IMG/VR virus record: IMGVR_UViG_3300032236_000267
Span: 1 to 38,678 of that record
Length of the DNA: 38,678 nucleotides
Origin: a virus
Strand: one strand, 5' to 3'
Positions 13,563-37,923 of this stretch are shown piece after piece. The notes beneath the pieces are model-generated. The model had not been told where the DNA came from. It searched no databases and saw only the letters and a program-made list of their open reading frames with translations. How positions within the stretch are numbered: position 1 is the stretch's first letter; the number at the start of each line of letters is the position of its first letter. The position numbers were made by a program, and so were the translations under genes.

Positions 13563-14915
13563 ATGTATCTTTCAGAAGAACTACAATCTAAATGGCAACC
13601 AGTTTTGGAACATCCAGAACTAGACGCTATTAAAGACCCATACAAAAAGGCCGTAACTGCAATGGTTCTTGAGAACCAACAAAAGGCTATTCTTCAAGAG
13701 CGTATGCAATTGAACGAAACCGACAGTGGTCCTACTAACTTAACCGGTGGCGTTAAGAACTACGATCCAATTTTGATTTCATTGGTTCGCCGTGCTTTGC
13801 CTAACTTGATTGCTTATGATGTTGCTGGTGTTCAACCAATGACAGGCCCAACTGGTCTTATCTTCGCAATGCGTGCCCGTTACGACAACCAATCTGGTGA
13901 CGAAGCATTCTTTAACGAAGCTAACACAGTATTCTCAGGTAATGTATCTACATCAAACCCATACGGTTTCGGCGGTACAGTTACAACTGATGCTAATACT
14001 AACCCAGCTGCATATGGTAACATTAACCAATCAGTAAACGGTTCTAACACATTCACATCTGGTATCGGTTTATCAACAGGTTCAGCAGAAACTCTTGGTG
14101 CTGACACTGGTATTCCTTTCCAACAAATGGCATTCTCAATTGAAAAAGTTTCTGTAACTGCTCAATCACGTGCTTTGAAAGCTGAATACTCATTAGAACT
14201 TGCTCAAGACTTGAAAGCTATCCATGGTTTGGATGCTGAAACAGAATTAAGCAACATTCTTTCAACAGAAATTCTTGCTGAAATTAACCGTGAAGTTATC
14301 CGTACTATCTACGCAGTTGCTAAAGCAGGTGCTCAATACGGTACACAAACTGCTGGTATTTTCAATCTTGACACAGACTCAAACGGTCGTTGGTCAGTTG
14401 AACGTTTCAAAGGTTTGATTTTCCAAATCGAACGTGATGCTAACGTAATTGCAAAACAAACTCGTAGAGGTAAAGGTAACGTGTTAATCGTTTCTTCAGA
14501 CGTTGCTTCTGCTCTTGCTATGGCTGGTGTATTACAATATACTCCTGCTTTATCAGCAGACTTGCAAGTTGATGATACTGGTAACACATATGCTGGTCTA
14601 TTACACGGTCGTATCAAAGTGTATATCGATCCATACTTCGGTGGTTACACATCAAACAACGAATTGGTAACAGTTGGTTATAAAGGTTCATCACCTTATG
14701 ACGCTGGTATTTTCTACTGCCCATACGTACCTCTACAAATGGTTCGTGCAGTTGACCAATTCACATTCCAACCAAAAATCGGTTTCAAAACTCGTTACGG
14801 TATGGTTGCTAACCCATTTGCTGAAGGTATTTACAACTCAGCAACTGGTAACGGCCGTCTAGTTACACGTAGCAATGTTTACTACCGCATTTTCCAAGTT
14901 GCGAACTTGATGTAG
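13563..14915 (+). CDS. gp23: Major capsid protein gp23
   Basis: The 450-residue protein is the T4-like major capsid protein (HK97 fold). Diagnostic stretches are LVRRALPNLIAYDVAGVQPM, TGPTGLIFAMRARY, FQQMAFSIEKVSVTAQSRAL, KAEYSLELAQDLKAIHGLD and KVYIDPYFGGYTS, with the end MVANPFAEG and YRIFQVANLM. The cleavage site for gp21 should lie around residues 55-65, after the N-terminal delta domain. Codon choice is visibly more even and GC-richer than in neighbouring accessory genes, as expected for the most expressed phage gene. AAGGAG precedes the ATG. A UUCG-loop terminator ends the unit. Confidence 0.97.
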   Translation: MYLSEELQSKWQPVLEHPELDAIKDPYKKAVTAMVLENQQKAILQERMQLNETDSGPTNLTGGVKNYDPILISLVRRALPNLIAYDVAGVQPMTGPTGLIFAMRARYDNQSGDEAFFNEANTVFSGNVSTSNPYGFGGTVTTDANTNPAAYGNINQSVNGSNTFTSGIGLSTGSAETLGADTGIPFQQMAFSIEKVSVTAQSRALKAEYSLELAQDLKAIHGLDAETELSNILSTEILAEINREVIRTIYAVAKAGAQYGTQTAGIFNLDTDSNGRWSVERFKGLIFQIERDANVIAKQTRRGKGNVLIVSSDVASALAMAGVLQYTPALSADLQVDDTGNTYAGLLHGRIKVYIDPYFGGYTSNNELVTVGYKGSSPYDAGIFYCPYVPLQMVRAVDQFTFQPKIGFKTRYGMVANPFAEGIYNSATGNGRLVTRSNVYYRIFQVANLM

Positions 14916-19388: not shown

Positions 19389-21005
<1,617 letters not shown>

Positions 21006-29879: not shown

Positions 29880-30269
29880 ATGGCTGACCTATTTAAAGAG
29901 GTCATTCCTGCCATCTTACAGACCAAAAAGAATGTGTTAGTAGATGAACAAGATGTCAAGAAATACGATGCCTTTATTGTTAATAAAGCTCTATCCTTTC
30001 ACGTAGATTGCATACTCCACGCAAACGAAATGAATAAATTCTGTGGTTTAGATAATGACCTACAGTTCCAATATTATCTAAATACCATAAGGTCAATGAA
30101 GCGGAAATACCAACCGTGGCAAAAGGCTGAAGTTGATAAGGATTTAGAGCCTATTAAAGAGTATTTTGGTTTCTCAAATGAGAAGGCTAAACAAGCTCTC
30201 AGAGTTCTAAACGATGAACAAATCACTTTAATAAAAGAAAAAACAAATAAAGGTGGAGTGACCAAATAA
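29880..30269 (+). CDS. gp62: Clamp loader small subunit gp62
   Basis: This 129-residue protein occupies the gene 62 place between 44 and regA. The family signature is visible in DLFKEVIPAILQTKKNV, the FIVNKALSFHVDCI segment, MNKFCGLDNDLQFQYYLNTI and RSMKRKYQPWQKA. It binds gp44 in a 4:1 complex. I chose ATG 29880, one base after the gene 44 stop; the frame opens further upstream inside gene 44. It is shorter than T4 gp62 (187 residues), as in marine relatives. The stop TAA shares its last base with the regA start. Confidence 0.9.
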   Translation: MADLFKEVIPAILQTKKNVLVDEQDVKKYDAFIVNKALSFHVDCILHANEMNKFCGLDNDLQFQYYLNTIRSMKRKYQPWQKAEVDKDLEPIKEYFGFSNEKAKQALRVLNDEQITLIKEKTNKGGVTK

Positions 30270-30685
30270 TGATTCGTATAGAAGACATGGTTGAAGTGAC
30301 TTTGGATAAGAAAGATGATTTCTTAAAGGTCAAAGAAACCCTTACCCGCATTGGATTGGCATCAAAAAAGGATAATACTTTATACCAATCATGCCACATT
30401 TTGCACAAACAAGGCAAGTATTACATCGTTCATTTTAAAGAACTATTTGCTTTGGATGGAAAACCATCAGACATTTCTGAGAATGATATTGCTCGTAGAA
30501 ATACTATTACTAATTTATTGGATGAATGGGACTTGGTTGACATTGTAAGACCAGAACAAACAGTCGAACCTATTGTTTCATTATCACAAGTTAAAATTAT
30601 TCCTTTCAAAGAAAAGAATGATTGGAATTTAGTTTCTAAATATAATATTGGCAAGAAACCAAATACAACAAATTACGCAGACTAA
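30269..30685 (+). CDS. regA: Translational repressor RegA
   Basis: The 138-residue protein is RegA, which binds ribosome-binding regions of early mRNAs and blocks translation. Typical stretches: FLKVKETLTRIGLASKKDNT, LYQSCHILHKQGKYYIVHFK, ELFALDGKPSDISENDIARR and NTITNLLDEWDLV. It starts one base before the gene 62 stop is complete. In T4 gene 43 (DNA polymerase) follows; here the pqqA/Hsp20/tRNA island follows, so the polymerase gene lies elsewhere. Confidence 0.94.
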   Translation: MIRIEDMVEVTLDKKDDFLKVKETLTRIGLASKKDNTLYQSCHILHKQGKYYIVHFKELFALDGKPSDISENDIARRNTITNLLDEWDLVDIVRPEQTVEPIVSLSQVKIIPFKEKNDWNLVSKYNIGKKPNTTNYAD

Positions 30686-30713: not shown

Positions 30714-30742
30714 TTGACGGGGTGTAAATAAAGGTGTAGGAT
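30714..30742 (+). promoter_or_regulatory. Sigma70-like promoter before pqqA
   Basis: TTGACG (30714-30719), a 17-base spacer and TAGGAT (30737-30742), 33 bases upstream of the pqqA start. The -35 is strong and the -10 is weak (4 of 6). It lies in the 90-base gap after regA. The spacer contains TAAATAAAG, so a late promoter overlapping it cannot be excluded. Confidence 0.55.
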
Positions 30743-30775
30743 GTAATCTCATTCAATAACTTTAGGAGAAATATT

Positions 30776-30847
30776 ATGTGGACAAAACCAGCTGCTACTG
30801 AAATGCGTTTCGGTTTCGAAGTAACAATGTACGTAATGAATAAATAG
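30776..30847 (+). CDS. pqqA: PqqA: precursor peptide of pyrroloquinoline quinone
   Basis: This 23-residue peptide starts MWTKPAATE and has the core GFEVTMY. PqqA peptides of PQQ-making bacteria share the start MW.KPa, a Glu and Arg near residues 9-11, Gly13 and the E-V-T-x-Y box in which Glu15 and Tyr19 are joined and excised to become PQQ. All these residues and the usual 23-residue length are present. PqqE (radical SAM) with PqqD makes the first Glu-Tyr bond; none of those partners is in the window, so the host would supply them. PQQ is the cofactor of methanol and glucose dehydrogenases in the periplasm. An excellent AGGAG site lies 7 bases before ATG and a promoter is upstream. The gene is isolated between regA and a structured RNA, which fits a phage-acquired metabolic gene. 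Confidence is high because the motif is strict, though the peptide is short. Confidence 0.88.
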
Positions 30848-30856
30848 TTATACAAT

Positions 30857-30968
30857 GTTTAAACAACCTCTCACATCCGGTCTTCAGAGTCGGTGTTGTC
30901 AAGTCGTTTAAACTCCGGTATTAACGCCTAGGACCGTTAATCAGGTGGGGATAACCTGTCAAACCCCA
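30857..30968 (+). ncRNA. Structured non-coding RNA downstream of pqqA
   Basis: The 129 bases between pqqA and the next late promoter contain no gene but a series of helices. GTTTAAAC at 30857-30864 pairs with an identical copy (self-complementary) at 30906-30913, enclosing an imperfect arm in which ACA-CCG pairs with CGG-TGT. ATTAACG (30920-30926) pairs with CGTTAAT (30935-30941). CAGGT (30942-30946) pairs with ACCTG (30954-30958), while GGGG (30947-30950) in its loop pairs with CCCC (30964-30967), an H-type pseudoknot. It is more GC-rich than its surroundings. I know no matching family; a riboswitch, a 3' stabiliser of the pqqA mRNA or a free small RNA are options. Confidence 0.6.
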
Positions 30969-30976
30969 ATTTGCTT

Positions 30977-30984: not shown

Positions 30985-30989
30985 AAGAG

Positions 30990-31008
30990 TACATGCCTTC
31001 GGGGTGTA
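30990..31008 (+). other. UUCG hairpin in the Hsp20 5' leader
   Basis: TACAT pairs with GTGTA and CC with GG around a TTCG tetraloop, with one bulged G, followed by TAATTTTT. It could act as a weak terminator for transcripts arriving from pqqA or, because it lies a few bases after the expected late start, as a protective 5' hairpin on the Hsp20 mRNA. Confidence 0.55.
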
Positions 31009-31046
31009 TAATTTTTGAAAACTTGCTTAATTTTAAGGAGAAAAAC

Positions 31047-31469
31047 ATGACTAATCCATACCGTTCACTATTACCTTCCACAATTGGTTTCGATAGACTA
31101 CTATCAACATTCGATGAGCTCAATGAAGCTATTACCGAAAAGAGACCAACATATCCGCCATACAACATCTATAAAGTAGATGATACGCATTACAAAATTC
31201 AAATTGCAGTTGCTGGGTTCAGTCGAGATGAATTACAAATTACCTTTGAAGGTAATAAAGTAATTGTTATTGGCCAAAAAGATAATTCTAATTTTATAGA
31301 ACCAAAATATATATATAAAGGTATTGCTACCAGAGACTTTCAACACACATTTACATTAGCTGAAACAGTTATTGTAGGGTCGGCTGAATTTGTTGATGGA
31401 ATACTTGAAATTGCTTTGAAAAATATTATTCCTGAGGAAAAGAAATCTCGTTTAATAGAAATCAAATAA
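31047..31469 (+). CDS. Small heat-shock protein, Hsp20/IbpA family
   Basis: The 140-residue protein is an alpha-crystallin-domain small heat-shock protein: the N-terminal arm has RSLLPSTIGFDRLLSTFDEL, the domain runs from about residue 35 (YPPYNIYKVDDTHYKIQIAV then AGFSRDELQITFEGNKVIV) to GILEIALKNIIPEEKK. The IbpA-type 'P.yNI.k.d...Y.I..avAGf..del.i' line is very clear. These proteins hold unfolding proteins for refolding; they are frequent in T4-like marine phages. I chose ATG 31047, behind AAGGAG; the frame opens further upstream across the leader. A late promoter and a hairpin precede it and a GAAA hairpin follows. Confidence 0.93.
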   Translation: MTNPYRSLLPSTIGFDRLLSTFDELNEAITEKRPTYPPYNIYKVDDTHYKIQIAVAGFSRDELQITFEGNKVIVIGQKDNSNFIEPKYIYKGIATRDFQHTFTLAETVIVGSAEFVDGILEIALKNIIPEEKKSRLIEIK

Positions 31470-31709: not shown

Positions 31710-31783
31710 GCGGGTTTAGTTTAATGGTAAAACTAGAGGTTTCCAACCTTTCGTTCTCAGTTCGATTCTGAGAATCCGCTCCA
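31710..31783 (+). tRNA. tRNA-Gly(TCC)
   Basis: A normal cloverleaf: acceptor GCGGGTT with AATCCGC, anticodon loop TTTCCAA, T-loop TTCGATT, U73 and encoded CCA. It reads GGA (and GGG). It is three bases after the tRNA-Gly-like RNA. Confidence 0.93.
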
Positions 31784-31789
31784 AACAAT

Positions 31790-31867
31790 CGCAGGTTAGA
31801 GTTCTGGCGAACTCACCGGTCTCATAAGCCGGACTAAGGTATGGTTCGATTCCTACACCTGCAACCA
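31790..31867 (+). tRNA. Initiator tRNA-fMet(CAT)
   Basis: The anticodon loop is CTCATAA. The hallmarks of a bacterial initiator are present: C1 facing A72 (unpaired end, C-GCAGGT against ACCTGC-A-A-CCA) and an A11-T24 pair in the D-stem. The anticodon stem is CCGGT/GCCGG, without the three consecutive G-C pairs of E. coli. The T-stem has a bulged T (GTA-T-GG with CCTAC), making 78 bases. Elongator Met is encoded separately at 37645. Confidence 0.82.
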
Positions 31868-31879
31868 ATACAGGTTATT

Positions 31880-31987
31880 ATGAAACATCCAGAGCGTGAT
31901 ACAATTTGGTGGTTTATGAGAATTGTGGAAATGATTACCTGTATTCATATCATGGCCAATTTTTGGCTAACTCACTTTATTAAATAG
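31880..31987 (+). CDS. 35-residue peptide, possibly membrane-associated
   Basis: A short frame beginning MKHPERDTIWWFMRIVEMIT and rich in aromatic and aliphatic residues to its end (HIMANFWLTHFIK). It could form one amphipathic or membrane-inserted helix. CAGGT lies 6 bases upstream as a poor ribosome site. It is packed between the initiator tRNA and a late promoter. No family recognised; it may be chance. Confidence 0.35.
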   Translation: MKHPERDTIWWFMRIVEMITCIHIMANFWLTHFIK

Positions 31988-31994
31988 ATAAATA
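31987..31994 (+). promoter_or_regulatory. Late promoter-like box GATAAATA (homospermidine synthase)
   Basis: GATAAATA, one mismatch to TATAAATA and the same variant as before gene 18. It lies 14 bases before ATG 32009 and 26 before ATG 32021. If used, the mRNA would start near 32001, which favours the second ATG. Confidence 0.5.
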
Positions 31995-32008
31995 TAGAAT
32001 AGTCTTTA

Positions 32009-33457
32009 ATGGGTGTTCAAATGAAATCTTTAAATCAATTCAAACTAACGAATAAGAAATATAAGAAACATGTAGTATTCAATGGTCGTATTCTTATTCT
32101 AGGCTATGGTTCAGTTGGCCAAGCAATTCTTCCTGTAATTATCAAACATATCGGTTTAGATTTAAACAAGATTACAGTATTAGAAAAAGACAATCACAAA
32201 AAACTATTTGACGAGCGCCATGGTGGGTCTGGTATCAAATATGTTCGTAAAGAAATCTTACCTGACAATTACAAAGCAGAGTTAAAGAAGTATGTTGGCC
32301 ACGGTGACCTTATTATCAATGCTTCATTGAACATTCAAGCATTAGCACTATTAGAATGGTGTGCTGAGAATGGTGTGATGCAGATTGATACATCACTAGA
32401 ACGTTGGGGTCACGACCAAGATGAAACAATCCCTAAATTATCAGATAGAACATTGTATCACACTCACAATGAAGTCCGTGAAGCAATGAAGAAATATCCA
32501 GGTTGTGCGACACTAGCTGTTACACACGGTGCTAATCCAGGTTATGTTAACCATCTAACTAAACGTGCATTGTTAAATCTAGCAGACGAGAAGAAAGAAA
32601 AAGTACAAGTTCCAACCTCACGTGAGGAATGGGCTCAACTAATGAAGTCATTGGGTGTTAAAGTAGTTCATATTGCTGAACGTGACACACAAATTGTGGA
32701 TGACCCTAAACTTAAAAACGAATTTGTTAATACATGGTCAGTTGAGGGCTTTTGGGCAGAAGGACGAGCACCATCTGAAATGGGATGGGGCACACATGAA
32801 GAAGAGCATCCAGAAGAGGGCGAATCTCAAGGTACGGCAGCATTCCTATATAAACCAGGCGTAACAGTAATGATGCGTTCATGGGTACCAAATGGCGGAC
32901 AATATAACGGATTCTGTGTACAACATTCAGAGTCAGTAACCATCAGTCAATACTTTGAAACAGAAGATGGTAAATTTAGACCATCAGTTTATTACGTTTA
33001 TCATCCATGTGATTCAGCCATTGTATCTTTACATGAAATGCGTGGTAAAGAATTGGACATGCAGAAGAAACAACGTATTGCTAAGAATGAAATTATTGCT
33101 GGTATGGATGAACTTGGTGTTCTTTTGATTGGTGATGACTTTGCTTTCTGGCATGGTTCACAAATGAATATTGACCACGCTCGTAAGTTGGTGCCAGGTG
33201 AAAATGCAACATCAATGCAAGTCGCCGGTTCTATGTTAGGTGCTATTGTTTGGATGATTAAACATCCATATAATGGTTATACAGAACCAGAAGATATCCC
33301 ATTCAGAGAAATCTTAGAAGTTGGTGATATGTATTGGGAACCTTTAGTAAGTGTCCTATCTAATTGGACACCAAACAAAGATGTAAATAGTTTATTCTAC
33401 CGTGAATTTGATTCTAAGAACCCTTGTAAATTTGAGAACTTTAGAGTTTGGACTTAA
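32009..33457 (+). CDS. hss: Homospermidine synthase
   Basis: This 482-residue protein is an NAD-dependent homospermidine synthase of the saccharopine-dehydrogenase fold, making homospermidine from two putrescine molecules. The Rossmann motif is ILILGYGSVGQAILP. Family-specific stretches are LAVTHGANPGYVNHLTKRAL, NTWSVEGFWAEGRAPSEMGW followed by GTHEEEHPEEG, and YYVYHPCDSAIVSLHE. Length equals bacterial enzymes (about 477). ATG 32009 gives the longest product; ATG 32021 (MKSLNQF) fits the late promoter better. Polyamines neutralise packaged DNA and support translation, so the enzyme may help DNA packing late in infection (inference). It is followed after 3 bases by the glycosyltransferase gene. 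Confidence 0.93.
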   Translation: MGVQMKSLNQFKLTNKKYKKHVVFNGRILILGYGSVGQAILPVIIKHIGLDLNKITVLEKDNHKKLFDERHGGSGIKYVRKEILPDNYKAELKKYVGHGDLIINASLNIQALALLEWCAENGVMQIDTSLERWGHDQDETIPKLSDRTLYHTHNEVREAMKKYPGCATLAVTHGANPGYVNHLTKRALLNLADEKKEKVQVPTSREEWAQLMKSLGVKVVHIAERDTQIVDDPKLKNEFVNTWSVEGFWAEGRAPSEMGWGTHEEEHPEEGESQGTAAFLYKPGVTVMMRSWVPNGGQYNGFCVQHSESVTISQYFETEDGKFRPSVYYVYHPCDSAIVSLHEMRGKELDMQKKQRIAKNEIIAGMDELGVLLIGDDFAFWHGSQMNIDHARKLVPGENATSMQVAGSMLGAIVWMIKHPYNGYTEPEDIPFREILEVGDMYWEPLVSVLSNWTPNKDVNSLFYREFDSKNPCKFENFRVWT

Positions 33458-33460
33458 ATA

Positions 33461-34174
33461 ATGTTTGTTTTGCCATGTAAATATGTTGAAGGGTGTTTGA
33501 TTGAAGATAGTGTTAAAGCTATCAGAGAACTACACCCTTTAGAAACTATATTAGTTGTTGATTCTGATTCCACCGATAAATCATATTATGAAAAACTAAA
33601 ACCGTATAATGTCATAATTGCCGACATCGCTAATAAAAATTACGAGTCTGGTGCATTTTGGTATGCAGTTGAAAATTATGTTGAACCATATTATGTTGTT
33701 ATTCAAGATTCAGTAATTCTCAAACAACACTTACATAAGTACCTACATGATTTTGAGCAATTCTATTGTTTTATCAATTTCAATGAAAACACTTTACACC
33801 ATCATATGCAAGACCAAACAGGAAGTTTTGGTTTTGTAACACGTATCAATGAGATGCTTGGTGGATTTGATAAAGTGTCATACCATGATAATCTAAATTT
33901 CACTGGTGTGTTTGGTCCTAGTTTTATTATTAAACGACCAATGGTTGACTTGATGTTGAAAAATAGATTAAATGAAACCTTGTTACCAGAGAATAAATTT
34001 GACCATCAGATTACAGAACGAATTTATGGTTTGGTGGCAAAACAATGTGGTGTTGATGTTGAGAAGAATACAATCTTGGGTAATTTACATCAACTAAAAT
34101 CAACAAACATGCAAGGTGAAGTGTTGGTTACCGACTTGCTAAATAAGGTATGGTTCGCAAATAAAAGACAATAG
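33461..34174 (+). CDS. GT2-like glycosyltransferase
   Basis: The 237-residue protein looks like a small GT-A glycosyltransferase: MFVLPCKYVEG start, ETILVVDSDSTDKSYYEKLK as the nucleotide-binding strand and loop, NYESGAFWYAVENYVEPYYV then VIQDSVIL in place of the DxD strand, and FDHQITERIYGLVAKQCGVD near the end. The metal motif is QDS rather than DxD, so catalysis is uncertain. It is part of a three-gene unit with homospermidine synthase (3 bases upstream) and the HAD-nucleotidyltransferase (3 bases downstream). Probably it decorates a surface or virion glycan; the substrate is unknown. Confidence 0.65.
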   Translation: MFVLPCKYVEGCLIEDSVKAIRELHPLETILVVDSDSTDKSYYEKLKPYNVIIADIANKNYESGAFWYAVENYVEPYYVVIQDSVILKQHLHKYLHDFEQFYCFINFNENTLHHHMQDQTGSFGFVTRINEMLGGFDKVSYHDNLNFTGVFGPSFIIKRPMVDLMLKNRLNETLLPENKFDHQITERIYGLVAKQCGVDVEKNTILGNLHQLKSTNMQGEVLVTDLLNKVWFANKRQ

Positions 34175-34177
34175 ATT

Positions 34178-35548
34178 ATGAATAAATTGGTTATTTTTGA
34201 CCTCGATGGGGTTTTGATTGATTCACGTGACTTACATTTCAACGCTTTAAACAAAGCACTCCACAAAGTCACACATGGTTACAACTACAATATATCTTAC
34301 GAAGAACATCTGGCTAAGTATGATGGGTTAAACACCACCAAAAAATTACAAATGTTGACCGATGAAAAAGGTTTACATACTGATTTTTATAATGATATTT
34401 GGCAAGAGAAACAAAATGCCACACTTGAATTAATTCCTGATTGTCCAAAGAATCCTTCAATTGCATATATCGTCACACAATTAAAAATCAAAGGTTGGAA
34501 GATTGCTGTTGCTTCTAATAGCATCAGAGAAACCGTTAGAGTTTCGTTGGCTAATCTTGGTATATTAAATTTTGTGGATTATTATGTGTCGAATGAAGAT
34601 GTAAGATATCCTAAACCATTTCCAGAAATGTATTGGAAATGTATGTCAGCACTTAAAGTATTACCTAAAGATACCATCATTGTGGAAGACTCACATATTG
34701 GAAGAGAAGGTGCCATTAATTCTGGTGCTCACTTATATCCTGTCAAAGATGCTTATGAGTTGAATGGTGTTACTTTTTTAAATTATGTTAAACAATTTGA
34801 CATGTGTAATAATGTTAATGTACCATGGAGAGATAGTAAGATGAATGTATTGATTCCTATGGCTGGTGCTGGTTCACGTTTCACGGCAGCTGGTTATACT
34901 TTTCCAAAACCATTGATTGAAGTTGATGGTAAACCAATGATTCAAGTTGTGGTTGAAAACTTAAACATTGAGGCTAATTTTATATTCTTGGTTCAAAAAG
35001 AACACTATGAGAAATACAATTTAAAATACTTACTTAATCTAATTGCACCTAATTGCAAGATTGTACAAGTTGATGGTATTACAGACGGTGCCGCTAGAAC
35101 TACTTTACTTGCTAAAGAGTTTATTGATAATGACCAACCTTTGTTGATGGCCAATTCAGACCAATACTTGGAATGGAATTCAAATGAGGTGTTATATGCT
35201 TTCAATGCCGATGACATCGATGGTGGAATTGTAACATTTAAAGCAACACATCCAAAATGGTCGTTTGCTAAATTGGATGCTGATGGTTTTGTTGAAGAAG
35301 TAGCAGAGAAGAAACCAATCTCAGACAATGCTACTGTTGGTGTGTATTATTGGAAGAAAGGTTCTGACTACGTTAAGTATGCGGAACAAATGATTGAAAA
35401 AGATATTAGAACAAACAATGAGTTTTATGTTTGTCCTGTATTCAATGAGGCGATTGGTGATGGCAAGAAAATTCGTGCCAAGTCTATTGAAAAGATGTGG
35501 GGTATTGGTACTCCAGAAGATTTAAATTATTTCTTAGAAAATCGCTAA
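34178..35548 (+). CDS. Fusion of HAD phosphatase and sugar nucleotidyltransferase
   Basis: The 456-residue protein joins two enzymes. Residues 1 to about 215 are a HAD hydrolase of the beta-phosphoglucomutase type: motif I FDLDGVLIDS, motif II VASNSIRE, motif III YPKPFPEMYW, motif IV IIVEDSHIGREGAINSGA. From about residue 220 an NTP-transferase begins with MNVLIPMAGAGSRFTAAGYT and FPKPLIEVDGKPMIQ (the GxGxRF..KP nucleotide-binding signature), continues with LLMANSDQYLEW (metal Asp) and ends with the IEKMWGIGTPEDL block of sugar nucleotidyltransferases. Together they could dephosphorylate or interconvert a sugar phosphate and activate it as a nucleotide sugar for the glycosyltransferase next door. 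The exact sugar is not evident. Confidence 0.88.
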   Translation: MNKLVIFDLDGVLIDSRDLHFNALNKALHKVTHGYNYNISYEEHLAKYDGLNTTKKLQMLTDEKGLHTDFYNDIWQEKQNATLELIPDCPKNPSIAYIVTQLKIKGWKIAVASNSIRETVRVSLANLGILNFVDYYVSNEDVRYPKPFPEMYWKCMSALKVLPKDTIIVEDSHIGREGAINSGAHLYPVKDAYELNGVTFLNYVKQFDMCNNVNVPWRDSKMNVLIPMAGAGSRFTAAGYTFPKPLIEVDGKPMIQVVVENLNIEANFIFLVQKEHYEKYNLKYLLNLIAPNCKIVQVDGITDGAARTTLLAKEFIDNDQPLLMANSDQYLEWNSNEVLYAFNADDIDGGIVTFKATHPKWSFAKLDADGFVEEVAEKKPISDNATVGVYYWKKGSDYVKYAEQMIEKDIRTNNEFYVCPVFNEAIGDGKKIRAKSIEKMWGIGTPEDLNYFLENR

Positions 35549-35576
35549 AATATTTTAAAATAAATGCAAAAAGTGC

Positions 35577-35605
35577 TTGACAAAAGCATATATACCTATT
35601 ATAAT
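35577..35605 (+). promoter_or_regulatory. Consensus sigma70 promoter
   Basis: TTGACA (35577-35582), 17 bases, TATAAT (35600-35605). The spacer begins AAAGCATATATA, nearly the same as in the promoter at 31494. It drives a short gene ended by the terminator at 35791, and perhaps the tRNA array by read-through. Confidence 0.88.
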
Positions 35606-35638
35606 AAGCACATATTGAAATTAACGAGAAAACTTTAA

Positions 35639-35761
35639 ATGATATTAAACATGATTAAACCGACAACGAAACAGGCGCTAACTGCTTTACGCAGTGAGTT
35701 CGGCTTTGCTTCGATTGTGGCCTCATGGGATTATAATCATAACAAAGGCTCGGGTATGTGA
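35639..35761 (+). CDS. 40-residue peptide of unknown function
   Basis: The frame reads MILNMIKPTTKQALTALRSE then ASIVASWDYNHNKGSGM. It lies 33 bases after a consensus promoter and 29 bases before a terminator, so the transcript appears to exist for this small gene or for an RNA function of the same stretch. The ribosome site (GAGAAA) is weak. I recognise no family. A short internal inverted repeat (CTGCTTTACGCAG) lies in its middle. Confidence 0.45.
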   Translation: MILNMIKPTTKQALTALRSEFGFASIVASWDYNHNKGSGM

Positions 35762-35790
35762 AATTAGTAGGAATTAGTAGTACACACACA

Positions 35791-35824
35791 AACCCGAGAC
35801 CTAAAAAATCTCGGGTTTTTTGTT
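35791..35824 (+). terminator. Intrinsic terminator
   Basis: AACCCGAGA pairs with TCTCGGGTT (9 bp) around a 9-base loop and is followed by a T-rich run to about 35827. It closes the short transcript that starts at 35577. The tRNA array begins 40 bases later. Confidence 0.85.
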
Positions 35825-35863
35825 TTTAGTAGTATCGTTCTTTATACAATTTAGATGTTATAT

Positions 35864-35939
35864 ACTCCGTTCGACAAACGGTTTAAGTCATCACCCTTTC
35901 AAGGTGAAGTTACGGGTTCGAATCCCGTACGGAGTACCA
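35864..35939 (+). tRNA. tRNA-Glu(TTC)
   Basis: Acceptor ACTCCGT with ACGGAGT, anticodon loop CTTTCAA, T-loop TTCGAAT, CCA encoded. First tRNA of the array. A weak promoter-like pair (TTGTTT, 17 bases, TATACA at 35843-35848) lies upstream. Its CCA also belongs to the inverted repeat of the next element. Confidence 0.93.
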
Positions 35940-36069
35940 TATAAAAATACTTTGGATGAGGGGGAATTGGTATACCCCGACGGATTGGAAAGTGTATGCT
36001 TAAATCTTTCTGAAAAATCCGTAGCATTGTCTAGGTTCGAGTCCTAGTCTAGAGTATTTTTATATGGTA
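35935..36069 (+). ncRNA. tRNA-like element on an extended helix, no CCA
   Basis: A tRNA-like body at about 35950-36054 has a Leu-type D-arm (GGGG-AATTGGTATA-CCCC region) and a good T-arm (CTAGG-TTCGAGT-CCTAG), but the anticodon stem ACGGA/TCCGT encloses about 33 bases rather than 7, with a GAAAG/CTTTC helix inside. There is no CCA. The acceptor-type stem (ACTTTGGA with TCTAGAGT, two G-T pairs) continues outward into a perfect inverted repeat, TACCATATAAAAATAC (35935-35950) with GTATTTTTATATGGTA (36054-36069), giving a helix of about 22 bp. It may be a degenerate tRNA or a processed regulatory RNA; it overlaps the CCA of tRNA-Glu. Confidence 0.6.
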
Positions 36070-36071
36070 AT

Positions 36072-36155
36072 GGGTGGTAGGTCATAATGGTATGACACCT
36101 GACTGTAAATCAGACGCCTCTGGCATAGTAGGTTCGATTCCTACACCACCCACCA
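36072..36155 (+). tRNA. tRNA-Tyr(GTA)
   Basis: Acceptor GGGTGGT with ACCACCC, anticodon loop CTGTAAA, a class II variable arm (GCCTCTGGC) typical of bacterial Tyr, T-loop TTCGATT, A73 and CCA. Confidence 0.94.
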
Positions 36156-36163
36156 AGTTTTAT

Positions 36164-36238
36164 GGCCGTTAAATCGAAAAGTTCAGATACTACTCTTTGA
36201 AAGTAGGTAAGTTGGAGCATTACCAACAACGGCTGCCA
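36164..36238 (+). tRNA. tRNA-Gln(TTG) with non-canonical D- and T-loops
   Basis: The acceptor GGCCGTT/AACGGCT has a weak G-T first pair, as expected for GlnRS recognition, with G73 and CCA. The anticodon arm CTACT-CTTTGAA-AGTAG is normal. The T-arm is GTTGG-AGCATTA-CCAAC: the loop lacks TTCGA and has AGCAT. The D-region (ATC-GAAAAGTTCA-GAT) lacks the conserved GG, and position 8 is A, not T. It is the only Gln tRNA in the window. Confidence 0.75.
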
Positions 36239-36248
36239 AGTTTTAAAT

Positions 36249-36337
36249 GGAGGGTTATCTAACCTGGGATGTTAGCGGTGCCTTGAAAGCATCTGGAGCC
36301 GAAAGGCCAAGAGTTCGATTCTGCTATCCCTCCGCCA
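36249..36337 (+). tRNA. tRNA-Ser(TGA)
   Basis: Class II tRNA with acceptor GGAGGG paired with CCCTCC, anticodon loop CTTGAAA, long variable arm (TGGAGCCGAAAGGCCA region), G73 and CCA. The T-stem (AAGAG/CTGCT) has two mismatches, so the structure is weaker than its neighbour's. Confidence 0.88.
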
Positions 36338-36345
36338 GTTTTATT

Positions 36346-36404
36346 TTGGAAGAAAGCTATGACATTAAGTATTCGAGGTTAGGAGAGCATAGCAAACCGT
36401 CCAA
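36346..36404 (+). other. Structured spacer between the two tRNA-Ser genes
   Basis: A 68-base gap between tRNA-Ser genes, where other gaps are 2 to 14 bases (apart from the 40-base hairpin gap at 37722). After the usual AGTTTTAT spacer it holds two nested helices: TTGGA with TCCAA, and GCTATG (36356-36361) with CATAGC (36388-36393). It contains GAGCATAGCA, a 10-base string also present in the tRNA-Gly-like RNA at 31640. It ends in TCCA. It could be the remnant of a tRNA or a small separate RNA. Confidence 0.4.
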
Positions 36405-36405
36405 T

Positions 36406-36493
36406 GGAAGTTTATCTAGTCTGGGAAACTAGCGATGTTTGCTAAACATTAGGAGCTAACAAGCCGAGGGTTCGATTCCCTAAACTTCCGCCA
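36406..36493 (+). tRNA. tRNA-Ser(GCT)
   Basis: Class II tRNA, acceptor GGAAGTT with AACTTCC, anticodon loop TTGCTAA, long variable arm, T-arm GAGGG-TTCGATT-CCCTA, G73, CCA. It reads AGC and AGT. Confidence 0.92.
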
Positions 36494-36495
36494 AT

Positions 36496-36572
36496 GCCCT
36501 TGTGACGAAATTGGCAAACGTGTCGGTCTTAGAAACCGAATTTTGTGGGTTCGACTCCCACTGAGGGCACCA
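36496..36572 (+). tRNA. tRNA-Leu(TAG) with short variable region
   Basis: Acceptor GCCCTTG with TGAGGGC, anticodon arm TCGGT-CTTAGAA-ACCGA, T-arm GTGGG-TTCGACT-CCCAC, A73, CCA. The D-arm is of the Leu type (GAAATTGGCAAAC). The variable region is only 5 bases (ATTTT), unlike the long arm normal for tRNA-Leu and present in tRNA-Leu(TAA) at 37762. Confidence 0.88.
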
Positions 36573-36580
36573 AGTTTTAT

Positions 36581-36657
36581 TGTGTACGACTTCTCTAGGT
36601 GAGAAGGCTTGACTGTTAATCAAGATGCGCTAGGTTCGAATCCTAGGTACACAGCCA
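36581..36657 (+). tRNA. tRNA-Asn(GTT)
   Basis: Acceptor TGTGTAC with GTACACA, anticodon arm TTGA-CTGTTAA-TCAA, T-loop TTCGAAT, G73, CCA. Standard cloverleaf. Confidence 0.93.
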
Positions 36658-36664
36658 GTTTTAT

Positions 36665-36739
36665 CTCTGTGTGGGCCAAAGGTTGGTCACTCGTTTTGGG
36701 GGCGAGACAATGTAGGTTCGAGTCCTACCATAGAGACCA
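36665..36739 (+). tRNA. tRNA-Pro(TGG)
   Basis: Acceptor CTCTGTG with CATAGAG, anticodon arm CTCGT-TTTGGGG-GCGAG, T-arm GTAGG-TTCGAGT-CCTAC, A73, CCA. Confidence 0.92.
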
Positions 36740-36745
36740 GTTATT

Positions 36746-36821
36746 GGGCTTTGATTGAGCTGGGGTTCTTGTCTGCTTTGCAAGCAGATATCGGTGGGTT
36801 CGATTCCCACAAGGTCCACCA
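36746..36821 (+). tRNA. tRNA-Ala(TGC)
   Basis: Acceptor GGGCTTT with AAGGTCC includes a G-T pair at the third position, the classic alanine identity element (G3-U70). Anticodon arm TCTGC-TTTGCAA-GCAGA, T-loop TTCGATT, A73, CCA. Confidence 0.93.
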
Positions 36822-36827
36822 AGGATT

Positions 36828-36901
36828 GCGGATATAGTTTAACGGTAAAATCAGACTTTGCCAAAGTTTAGTCACGAGTTCGACTCTCGTTATCCGCTCC
36901 A
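36828..36901 (+). tRNA. tRNA-Gly(GCC)
   Basis: Acceptor GCGGATA with TATCCGC, anticodon loop TTGCCAA, T-arm ACGAG-TTCGACT-CTCGT, U73, CCA. Reads GGC and GGT, complementing tRNA-Gly(TCC) at 31710. Confidence 0.93.
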
Positions 36902-36907
36902 AGTTTT

Positions 36908-36984
36908 ACTCGGTTAGCTCAGTTGGTAGCAGCGGTCTCCTTACAAGTGACAGGTCGTAAGTTCGAACCTTACACCGAGTACCA
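36908..36984 (+). tRNA. tRNA-Val(TAC)
   Basis: Acceptor ACTCGGT with ACCGAGT, anticodon loop CTTACAA, T-arm GTAAG-TTCGAAC-CTTAC, A73, CCA. The anticodon stem GTCTC/GTGAC has one T-T mismatch. Confidence 0.9.
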
Positions 36985-36989
36985 GTTTT

Positions 36990-37064
36990 GCCCCTTTCGT
37001 ATAACGGCTATTACGCCTGTTTTGTAATCAGGTCATCACGGTTCGATTCCGTGTAGGGGCTCCA
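36990..37064 (+). tRNA. tRNA-Thr(TGT)
   Basis: Acceptor GCCCCTT with TAGGGGC, anticodon arm CCTGT-TTTGTAA-TCAGG (last pair T-T), T-arm CACGG-TTCGATT-CCGTG, T73, CCA. Confidence 0.9.
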
Positions 37065-37072
37065 AGTTTTAT

Positions 37073-37147
37073 GACCCGTTGATATAACGGCTATTATGTC
37101 TGCCTGTCTAGCAGAATACAGGGGTTCAACTCCCCTACGGGTCGCCA
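37073..37147 (+). tRNA. tRNA-Asp(GTC)
   Basis: Acceptor GACCCGT with ACGGGTC, anticodon arm TCTGC-CTGTCTA-GCAGA, T-arm AGGGG-TTCAACT-CCCCT, G73, CCA. Confidence 0.93.
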
Positions 37148-37154
37148 AGTTTCT

Positions 37155-37231
37155 GCCCTCTTAGCACAACGGATTAGTGCATCGGTTTACGAAGCCGCAG
37201 GTTGGGAGTTCAAATCTCTCAGAGGGTGCCA
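37155..37231 (+). tRNA. tRNA-Arg(ACG)
   Basis: Acceptor GCCCTCT with AGAGGGT, anticodon loop TTACGAA (A34, normally edited to inosine by host TadA), T-arm GGGAG-TTCAAAT-CTCTC, G73, CCA. Reads CGT, CGC and CGA; no tRNA for AGA was found. Confidence 0.9.
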
Positions 37232-37239
37232 GGTTTAAT

Positions 37240-37315
37240 GCTCGGGTAGTTCAACGGTTCAGAACAGACGACCGATAATCGTCAAATGAGAGTTCGATTC
37301 TCTCTCCGAGTACCA
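37240..37315 (+). tRNA. tRNA-Ile(GAT) with C33
   Basis: Acceptor GCTCGGG with TCCGAGT, anticodon arm GACGA-CCGATAA-TCGTC, T-arm AGAG-TTCGATT-CTCT, A73, CCA. The base before the anticodon is C, not the near-universal T33. Confidence 0.87.
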
Positions 37316-37324
37316 AGTTTTAAT

Positions 37325-37400
37325 AGGACTCAGGTATATGTGGTCAGTACGTGGCGCTGAAGACGCTGAGGACTCGGTTCGATTCCGAGGGGTCCTACCA
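37325..37400 (+). tRNA. tRNA-Phe(GAA)
   Basis: Acceptor AGGACTC with GGGTCCT, anticodon arm TGGCG-CTGAAGA-CGCTG, T-arm CTCGG-TTCGATT-CCGAG, A73, CCA. Confidence 0.92.
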
Positions 37401-37402
37401 AT

Positions 37403-37477
37403 GTGTAAGTGGCCGAATGATTAGGCGTCAGTCTGCAAAACTGTTTAATGTGGGTTTGATTCCCATCTTACACTCCA
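37403..37477 (+). tRNA. tRNA-Cys(GCA)
   Basis: Acceptor GTGTAAG with CTTACAC, anticodon loop CTGCAAA, U73 (a Cys identity element), CCA. The T-loop is TTTGATT, with T in place of the usual C56. Confidence 0.9.
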
Positions 37478-37485
37478 AGTTTTAT

Positions 37486-37559
37486 CCCGGTGTAGTGTAG
37501 CGGTAGCACAAGAGCTTCCAAACCTCTTGGTGGGGGTTCAACTCCCTCCGCCGGGCCCA
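37486..37559 (+). tRNA. tRNA-Trp(CCA)
   Basis: Acceptor CCCGGTG with CGCCGGG, anticodon loop TTCCAAA in the stem AGAGC/CCTCT (inner pair C-C), T-arm GGGGG-TTCAACT-CCCTC, CCA. The discriminator appears to be C, while bacterial tRNA-Trp normally has G, so the identity is a little less certain. Confidence 0.78.
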
Positions 37560-37561
37560 AT

Positions 37562-37637
37562 GGTGTCATTAATGTAGTGGCTAGCATATTAGACTGTGAA
37601 TCTGATAGGACGAGTTCAAATCTCGTATGACACCCCA
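37562..37637 (+). tRNA. tRNA-His(GTG)
   Basis: The acceptor is 8 bp (GGTGTCAT with ATGACACC), i.e. an encoded G-1 opposite C73, the histidine identity pair. Anticodon arm TTAGA-CTGTGAA-TCTGA, T-loop TTCAAAT, CCA. Confidence 0.94.
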
Positions 37638-37644
37638 AGTATTT

Positions 37645-37721
37645 GGAAATATAGCATAGGGGCTTAATGCACCTCCTTCATACGGAGACTATCCTAGGTT
37701 CAAATCCTAGTATTTCCACCA
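37645..37721 (+). tRNA. tRNA-Met(CAT), elongator type
   Basis: Acceptor GGAAATA with TATTTCC (first pair closed, unlike the initiator at 31790), anticodon loop TTCATAC, T-arm CTAGG-TTCAAAT-CCTAG, A73, CCA. A tRNA-Ile with modified CAT anticodon is the alternative and cannot be excluded by reading. Confidence 0.82.
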
Positions 37722-37730
37722 AAGTTTTAA

Positions 37731-37758
37731 TCTAGAAAAAGTATGGTGTTTTTCTAGA
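37731..37758 (+). repeat. Perfect 10-bp inverted repeat between tRNA genes
   Basis: TCTAGAAAAA (37731-37740) and TTTTTCTAGA (37749-37758) enclose GTATGGTG. It lies in the 40-base gap between tRNA-Met and tRNA-Leu, one of only two long gaps in the array. It may terminate or attenuate transcription (the 3' arm starts with five Ts) or guide RNA processing. Confidence 0.7.
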
Positions 37759-37761
37759 AAT

Positions 37762-37844
37762 GCGATTGTGGTGAAATTGGCAAACACATCTGTCTTAAGA
37801 ACAGACGCTTCGGCTTGAGGGTTCGACTCCCTCCTTTCGCACCA
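37762..37844 (+). tRNA. tRNA-Leu(TAA)
   Basis: Acceptor GCGATTG with CTTTCGC, anticodon arm TCTGT-CTTAAGA-ACAGA, long variable arm CGCTTCGGCTT, T-arm GAGGG-TTCGACT-CCCTC, A73, CCA. Standard class II leucine tRNA. Confidence 0.93.
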
Positions 37845-37846
37845 AT

Positions 37847-37923
37847 GGGAGTATAGTATAATGGTTCTATTACATCCGGCTTTTAACCGGTCAATCTGAG
37901 TTCGATTCTCAGTGCTCCTACCA
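37847..37923 (+). tRNA. tRNA-Lys(TTT)
   Basis: Acceptor GGGAGTA with TGCTCCT, anticodon arm CCGG-CTTTTAA-CCGG, T-arm CTGAG-TTCGATT-CTCAG, A73, CCA. Last tRNA of the array. Confidence 0.92.

What the first reader, a model, noticed from the sequence alone, without database searches (positions are those of the whole stretch)
30776..30847. A phage-encoded pqqA, precursor of the methanol-dehydrogenase cofactor PQQ
Seen: a 23-residue frame with an AGGAG site and an upstream promoter carries the invariant PqqA residues (MW.KP start, Gly13, Glu15-Val-Thr-x-Tyr19) at the exact family length. Known: Glu and Tyr of this peptide are the only building blocks of PQQ, and PQQ is needed by methanol and glucose dehydrogenases. 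Inference: the phage supplies extra precursor so that the host's PqqB-E make more PQQ during infection, keeping methanol or alcohol oxidation running. This suggests a methylotrophic host. I am not aware of a characterised phage pqqA. The gene is so short that automatic gene callers would miss it.
Basis: partly seen in the sequence, partly recalled or inferred. Interest (0 to 1): 0.88.

Follow-up and report, generated by a model that had tools for sequence, protein, structure and literature searches.

The report
Phage gene for PQQ precursor peptide
This T4-like virus of methanol-eating bacteria carries a tiny, usually overlooked gene (pqqA) for the peptide from which the cofactor of methanol dehydrogenase is made; the same gene sits unrecognised in nine isolated phages of such bacteria from unrelated lineages, so propping up the host's methanol oxidation looks like a common strategy of these viruses.

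Summary
Window 30776-30847 encodes a 23-residue PqqA that passes the cut-offs of both curated PqqA families and is letter-for-letter the commonest Methylophilaceae host PqqA (68/69 bases identical to three host copies). It is not chance (about 6e-9 expected motifs). It lies after regA in a T4-like phage whose capsid protein is closest to the OM43 phage Melnitz. The interpretation (precursor supply to the host's PQQ enzymes) is well supported but not experimentally shown. It is not new in kind: PqqA was reported in a T4-like Methylophilaceae phage from Lake Baikal (PMC7678222). What is new here is the breadth: pqqA sits, unannotated or under an antisense 'hypothetical', in isolates Venkman, P19250A, MEP301, MEP401, MEP402 and four Melnitz, and in at least 240 IMG/VR stretches; among 50,697 phage records it occurs in no credible phage of another known host. 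It is under purifying selection. Hosts keep 1-12 pqqA copies but usually one pqqE, which fits a consumed substrate. No phage-encoded PQQ dehydrogenase or PqqE was found with it. The claimed promoter is no better than chance.

The parts
30776..30847 (+). pqqA: 23-codon gene for the PQQ precursor peptide [23 protein letters not shown]
   Evidence: PF08042 and TIGR02107 above curated cut-offs; identical peptide in host and phage copies
30764..30768 (+). Shine-Dalgarno AGGAG, 7 nt before the ATG; GGAGAAATATT up to the ATG is shared with host copies L150 and L229
   Evidence: sequence
30714..30742 (+). weak sigma-70-like site TTGACG-17-TAGGAT, possible promoter, not above chance
   Evidence: group test
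30269..30685 (+). regA (translational repressor), the gene before pqqA; the regA-pqqA order recurs in related contigs
   Evidence: PF01818 E 4.4e-47; synteny
31047..31469 (+). hsp20, the gene after pqqA
   Evidence: PF00011 E 1.3e-14
30841..30972 (+). 132-nt noncoding element beginning at the pqqA stop codon, 97.7% identical to L056 although neighbouring DNA is 81% identical
13563..14915 (+). major capsid protein gp23; nearest relatives are the OM43 phages Melnitz (65.6%): shows the viral context and points to the host group

Best explanation
The gene is a functional, phage-encoded pqqA taken from a Methylophilaceae host. During infection the phage makes a PqqA peptide identical to the host's own. 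The host's PqqD and PqqE bind it and cross-link Glu15 to Tyr19, and the host proteases, PqqB and PqqC finish PQQ. The PQQ loads periplasmic PQQ-dependent (XoxF/MxaF-type) methanol dehydrogenase and keeps methanol oxidation, and so energy and one-carbon supply, running until lysis. Shown: the gene, its family, its viral location, its spread across unrelated methylophages, purifying selection, and the presence of PqqE and PQQ dehydrogenases in hosts. Inferred: expression, processing, higher PQQ and benefit to the phage.
For: PqqA families above cut-off; peptide identical to 58 of 130 host PqqA hits and 68/69 nt identical to three host copies. Present in isolated phages of known Methylophilales hosts: Venkman, P19250A, MEP301, MEP401, MEP402 and four Melnitz; of these Venkman, MEP301, MEP402 and P19250A share at most 6 long ORFs pairwise and none with the window. 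In 50,697 phage records it is in no phage of another known host, apart from two records labelled Acinetobacter phage, one of which carries a cellular pqqBCD-radical SAM operon. Searches with a MEP402 polymerase, a MEP301 terminase and the window's capsid protein listed no further Methylophilales-named phage without it among the rows shown. All 121 viral copies first read are exactly 23 aa; 110 distinct DNA versions, pS 0.71 against pN 0.17 at codons not fixed by the search pattern; one peptide is encoded by 29 DNA versions differing by up to 14 bases. Hosts: pqqA in 100/100 genomes, 97 with two or more, up to 12; PqqE in 59/60, usually one copy; PQQ alcohol dehydrogenase in 60/60. Hyphomicrobium denitrificans has five pqqA copies, and pqqA1 and pqqA3 expression peaks with the PQQ synthesis rate in an overproducer (PMC9851590).
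Against: No transcript, peptide or PQQ measurement exists here. The window's pqqA lacks a clear promoter and terminator. Host genomes already hold several copies, so the gain from one more is unproven. Only 2 of 80 T4-like regA neighbourhoods have pqqA. No phage-encoded PQQ dehydrogenase or PqqE accompanies it in the records searched. OM43 strain H5P1 is grown with added PQQ (PMC9004378), so PQQ supply may be met in other ways. In Acetobacter, pqqAB overexpression raised PQQ by only 29% against eightfold for pqqABCDE (PMC7936290), so the peptide is not always the bottleneck.
Confidence: 0.78

Rival explanations
1. Functional PqqA, but PQQ serves something other than methanol dehydrogenase energy supply: another PQQ enzyme, redox protection, or PQQ released as a shared good at lysis.
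For: Hosts carry several PQQ dehydrogenase paralogues. The sequence does not say which enzyme benefits.
Against: In the phage record collection pqqA is confined to methylotroph phages; the many records of phages of other genera that include PQQ makers (Pseudomonas, Klebsiella, Acinetobacter) lack it, which points to methanol oxidation.
Confidence: 0.13
2. Neutral passenger: a host gene picked up recently by recombination and not used.
For: The window copy is only one base from host copies, whereas the close relative L056 has a copy differing at 17 of 69 bases in the same place, so the window allele may be a recent exchange.
Against: pN/pS 0.24 across 110 viral versions, intact length in all, good ribosome sites, and presence in unrelated phage lineages.
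Confidence: 0.04
3. PqqA overproduction titrates PqqD/PqqE or otherwise inhibits host PQQ synthesis, a regulatory use of the peptide.
For: A lone substrate peptide without enzymes could in principle saturate the chaperone; no direct evidence.
Against: The peptide is identical to the host substrate and keeps both reactive residues. The invariance of Glu15 and Tyr19 across the viral set cannot be used as proof, because the search pattern required them.
Confidence: 0.03
4. Host contamination of the contig, or an attachment site copied from host pqqA.
For: High identity to host DNA over the ribosome site and frame.
Against: Present in purified isolates of known phages; flanked by T4-like replication genes, and no integrase was recognised among the window's ORFs; most phage copies differ from one another at many silent sites, which an attachment core would not.
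Confidence: 0.02

Closest known systems
PqqA of Lake Baikal methylotroph phage VP_266 (PMC7678222, 2020)
   Same: T4-like phage, predicted Methylophilaceae host, 35% GC, encodes PqqA and a peptide deformylase, as this window does
   Different: There it was reported with a methanol dehydrogenase; none was found in the window or in 45 other pqqA-bearing records. Whether VP_266 is the same phage species could not be tested, its contig was not at hand.
Host PqqA (PF08042, TIGR02107), Methylopumilus and Methylotenera copies
   Same: Identical peptide, near-identical DNA and the same ribosome-site context
   Different: Located in a phage genome after regA, without pqqB-E
Melnitz OM43 phages (PMC9004378)
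   Same: T4-like, closest capsid protein, carry hsp20 and a pqqA
   Different: Their pqqA ([24 protein letters not shown], next to a tRNA-Leu) is unrecognised; an antisense 'hypothetical protein' is annotated over it
Cyanophage photosynthesis genes such as psbA (from general knowledge)
   Same: Host-derived metabolic gene in lytic phages of one metabolic guild that props up the host's energy metabolism
   Different: pqqA encodes a consumed cofactor precursor of 23 residues, not a working protein of the energy chain

Membership tests
PqqA (PF08042 / TIGR02107) | Sequence above the curated cut-offs | tested here: met
   42.4 bits against 21.1; 40.4 bits against 20
PqqA (PF08042 / TIGR02107) | Glu and Tyr separated by three residues (Glu15, Tyr19) in G-x-EVT-x-Y | tested here: met
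PqqA (PF08042 / TIGR02107) | Short peptide of about 22-29 residues | tested here: met
   23 residues; all 121 viral copies first read are 23 residues
PqqA (PF08042 / TIGR02107) | Accepted and cross-linked by PqqE with PqqD | not testable with these tools
   Indirect only: identical to host PqqA
Phage auxiliary metabolic gene | Lies in a genuine phage genome | tested here: met
   Between regA and hsp20 of a T4-like genome; also in purified isolates
Phage auxiliary metabolic gene | Host-derived metabolic gene | tested here: met
   68/69 bases identical to Methylophilaceae copies
Phage auxiliary metabolic gene | Kept by selection in phages | tested here: met
   pN/pS 0.24 at codons not fixed by the pattern
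Phage auxiliary metabolic gene | Raises host metabolism during infection | not testable with these tools
   needs infection experiments
Phage methanol-oxidation gene set as reported in Baikal VP_139/VP_266 | Phage-encoded methanol dehydrogenase in the same genome | tested here: not met
   0 of 46 records including the window; the window record is a fragment, so absence from the whole phage is not shown

The most novel reading that the evidence does not exclude
pqqA is a near-universal hallmark gene of phages that infect Methylophilaceae, gained or kept across several unrelated phage lineages and missed in nearly all annotations, because the supply of one consumed peptide limits PQQ, and so methanol oxidation, in infected cells. 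The presence of pqqA could then serve as a host marker for uncultivated methylophages.
Probability: 0.65. Interest if true: 0.75.

Novelty: new member of a known kind. Interest (0 to 1): 0.62.

Why it matters
It gives a simple test of how lytic phages manipulate one-carbon metabolism: cultivated phage-host pairs (Venkman, Melnitz, MEP301, MEP401/402, P19250A) already exist and turn out to carry the gene. It shows that surveys based on gene callers overlook very short metabolic genes, and that pqqA may flag methylotroph phages in metagenomes. It also suggests that viruses affect methanol turnover in coastal seas and lakes through cofactor supply rather than through a viral enzyme.

Tried and rejected
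Rfam found only tRNAs at gathering thresholds; the region after pqqA folds no better than shuffles (z -0.03). The window's tRNA cluster did not identify a host (1 of 60 genomes, 65 bases). Gene-sharing clusters of the viral contigs were too mosaic to count lineages, so only whole isolates were compared. The promoter idea was dropped. The two Acinetobacter 'phage' hits were set aside because one record holds a cellular pqqBCD-radical SAM operon; the other was not inspected. The isolates were found through pqqA itself, so the nine of nine is not an unbiased sample; MEP431-434, Venkman EXVC038S and a few other named methylophages were not examined. The literature search covers open-licence PMC papers only.

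Full report
Check of the observation. The frame at 30776-30847 reads [23 protein letters not shown] and stops. AGGAG lies at 30764-30768, 7 nt before the ATG. Both curated models of PqqA accept it at about twice their cut-off. A motif of this kind is expected about 6e-9 times in the window by composition. The proposed promoter, TTGACG-17-TAGGAT, is of a quality found as often in shuffled DNA, and no terminator was found directly after the gene.

The genome. The record is a 38,678-base viral contig. It holds T4-like structural and replication genes, and regA and hsp20 flank pqqA. Its gp23 capsid protein is closest to the four Melnitz phages of OM43 strain H5P1 (65.6%), then to pelagiphages and cyanophages.

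Relatives. All 121 first-pattern copies, window included, are 23 residues long. The six contigs that carry the element found downstream of pqqA, the closest relatives found, all have pqqA ([23 protein letters not shown]) upstream of it; in L056 it follows regA directly. Several further contigs show regA followed by pqqA. In a broad set of 80 regA neighbourhoods only two have it, so it is not a general T4-like gene.

Isolates. tblastn of the peptide against 50,697 phage records finds Venkman, P19250A, MEP301, MEP401, MEP402, four Melnitz, one podovirus genome from a spring, and two records labelled Acinetobacter phage, one of which carries a cellular pqqBCD-radical SAM operon. In Venkman, P19250A, MEP301, MEP401 and MEP402 no feature is annotated there; in Melnitz and in the spring phage an antisense 'hypothetical protein' covers it. 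Six representative genomes pass the TIGR02107 cut-off. Window, Venkman, MEP301, MEP402 and P19250A share few or no long ORFs. Queries with a Pseudomonas-type and a Methylobacterium-type PqqA (letters from memory) find no phages of other hosts. Papers describing these isolates do not mention PQQ as a phage function. The isolates were found through pqqA, so the sample is not independent; three hallmark searches listed no further Methylophilales-named phage without it.

Selection and origin. Among 110 distinct viral sequences, at codons not fixed by the search pattern, pS is 0.71 and pN 0.17. The same peptide is encoded by 29 DNA versions. The window's copy is one base from three Methylophilaceae copies; the near relative L056 differs at 17 of 69 bases although regA differs at 66 of 414. 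This suggests, without proving, that the window allele was replaced by a host allele. Terminator-like hairpins follow 38% of viral pqqA copies against 9.7% of other ORFs, so many are probably separate transcription units.

Hosts. All 100 Methylophilaceae genomes searched have pqqA, 97 of them two or more and up to 12; 59 of 60 have PqqE, usually once; 60 of 60 have PQQ alcohol dehydrogenases. From established knowledge of the pathway, the enzymes are catalytic and the peptide is consumed, which makes pqqA the natural gene for a phage to bring. No PQQ dehydrogenase was found in 46 records, the window and pqqA-bearing phages, and no true PqqE in 46 others.

Literature. A PqqA in a T4-like Methylophilaceae phage of Lake Baikal, with methanol dehydrogenase, was described in 2020 (PMC7678222); viral pqqA, pqqD and pqqE are listed in a reservoir survey of 2026 (PMC13188868). 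The kind is therefore known.

Verdict. Real gene, interpretation supported, function still to be shown.

Noticed in passing
window 30841-30972; L056 3047-3178: A 132-nt noncoding element 97.7% identical between two phages whose neighbouring DNA is 81% identical, with hairpin TTAACG-CCTAGGAC-CGTTAA and a possible pseudoknot (CAGGT-GGGG-ACCTG-CCCC). An HNH-like ORF lies just before it in L056, and the same preceding sequence is seen in L460, L461 and L462 but not in L458/L459. Found in six IMG/VR contigs.
   Followed up: partly
window 30987-31052: The leader of the phage hsp20 gene resembles the ROSE_3 RNA thermometer (24.9 bits, gathering 43, E 0.0042 on 401 bases), with a similar leader in L056: possible heat-sensing leader.
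   Followed up: partly
window 19389-21005: A full-length GroEL (538 aa) in a T4-like phage (PF00118).
   Followed up: no
window 32009-33457: A saccharopine-dehydrogenase-family protein that looks like homospermidine synthase (families; the specific name is from memory): possible polyamine gene.
   Followed up: no
window 31710-37923: 22 tRNA genes covering most amino acids.
   Followed up: no
Methylophilaceae genomes G086-G186: Hosts hold up to 12 dispersed pqqA copies; even 1.2-1.3 Mb streamlined genomes mostly keep two or three.
   Followed up: partly
L128 (CAKLQF020000010.1): A record labelled Acinetobacter phage MD-2021a carries ppk and a pqqBCD-radical SAM operon and looks like bacterial chromosome.
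   Followed up: no
L054 and L103: In some T4-like contigs pqqA lies directly after the major capsid gene, suggesting late expression there.
   Followed up: no
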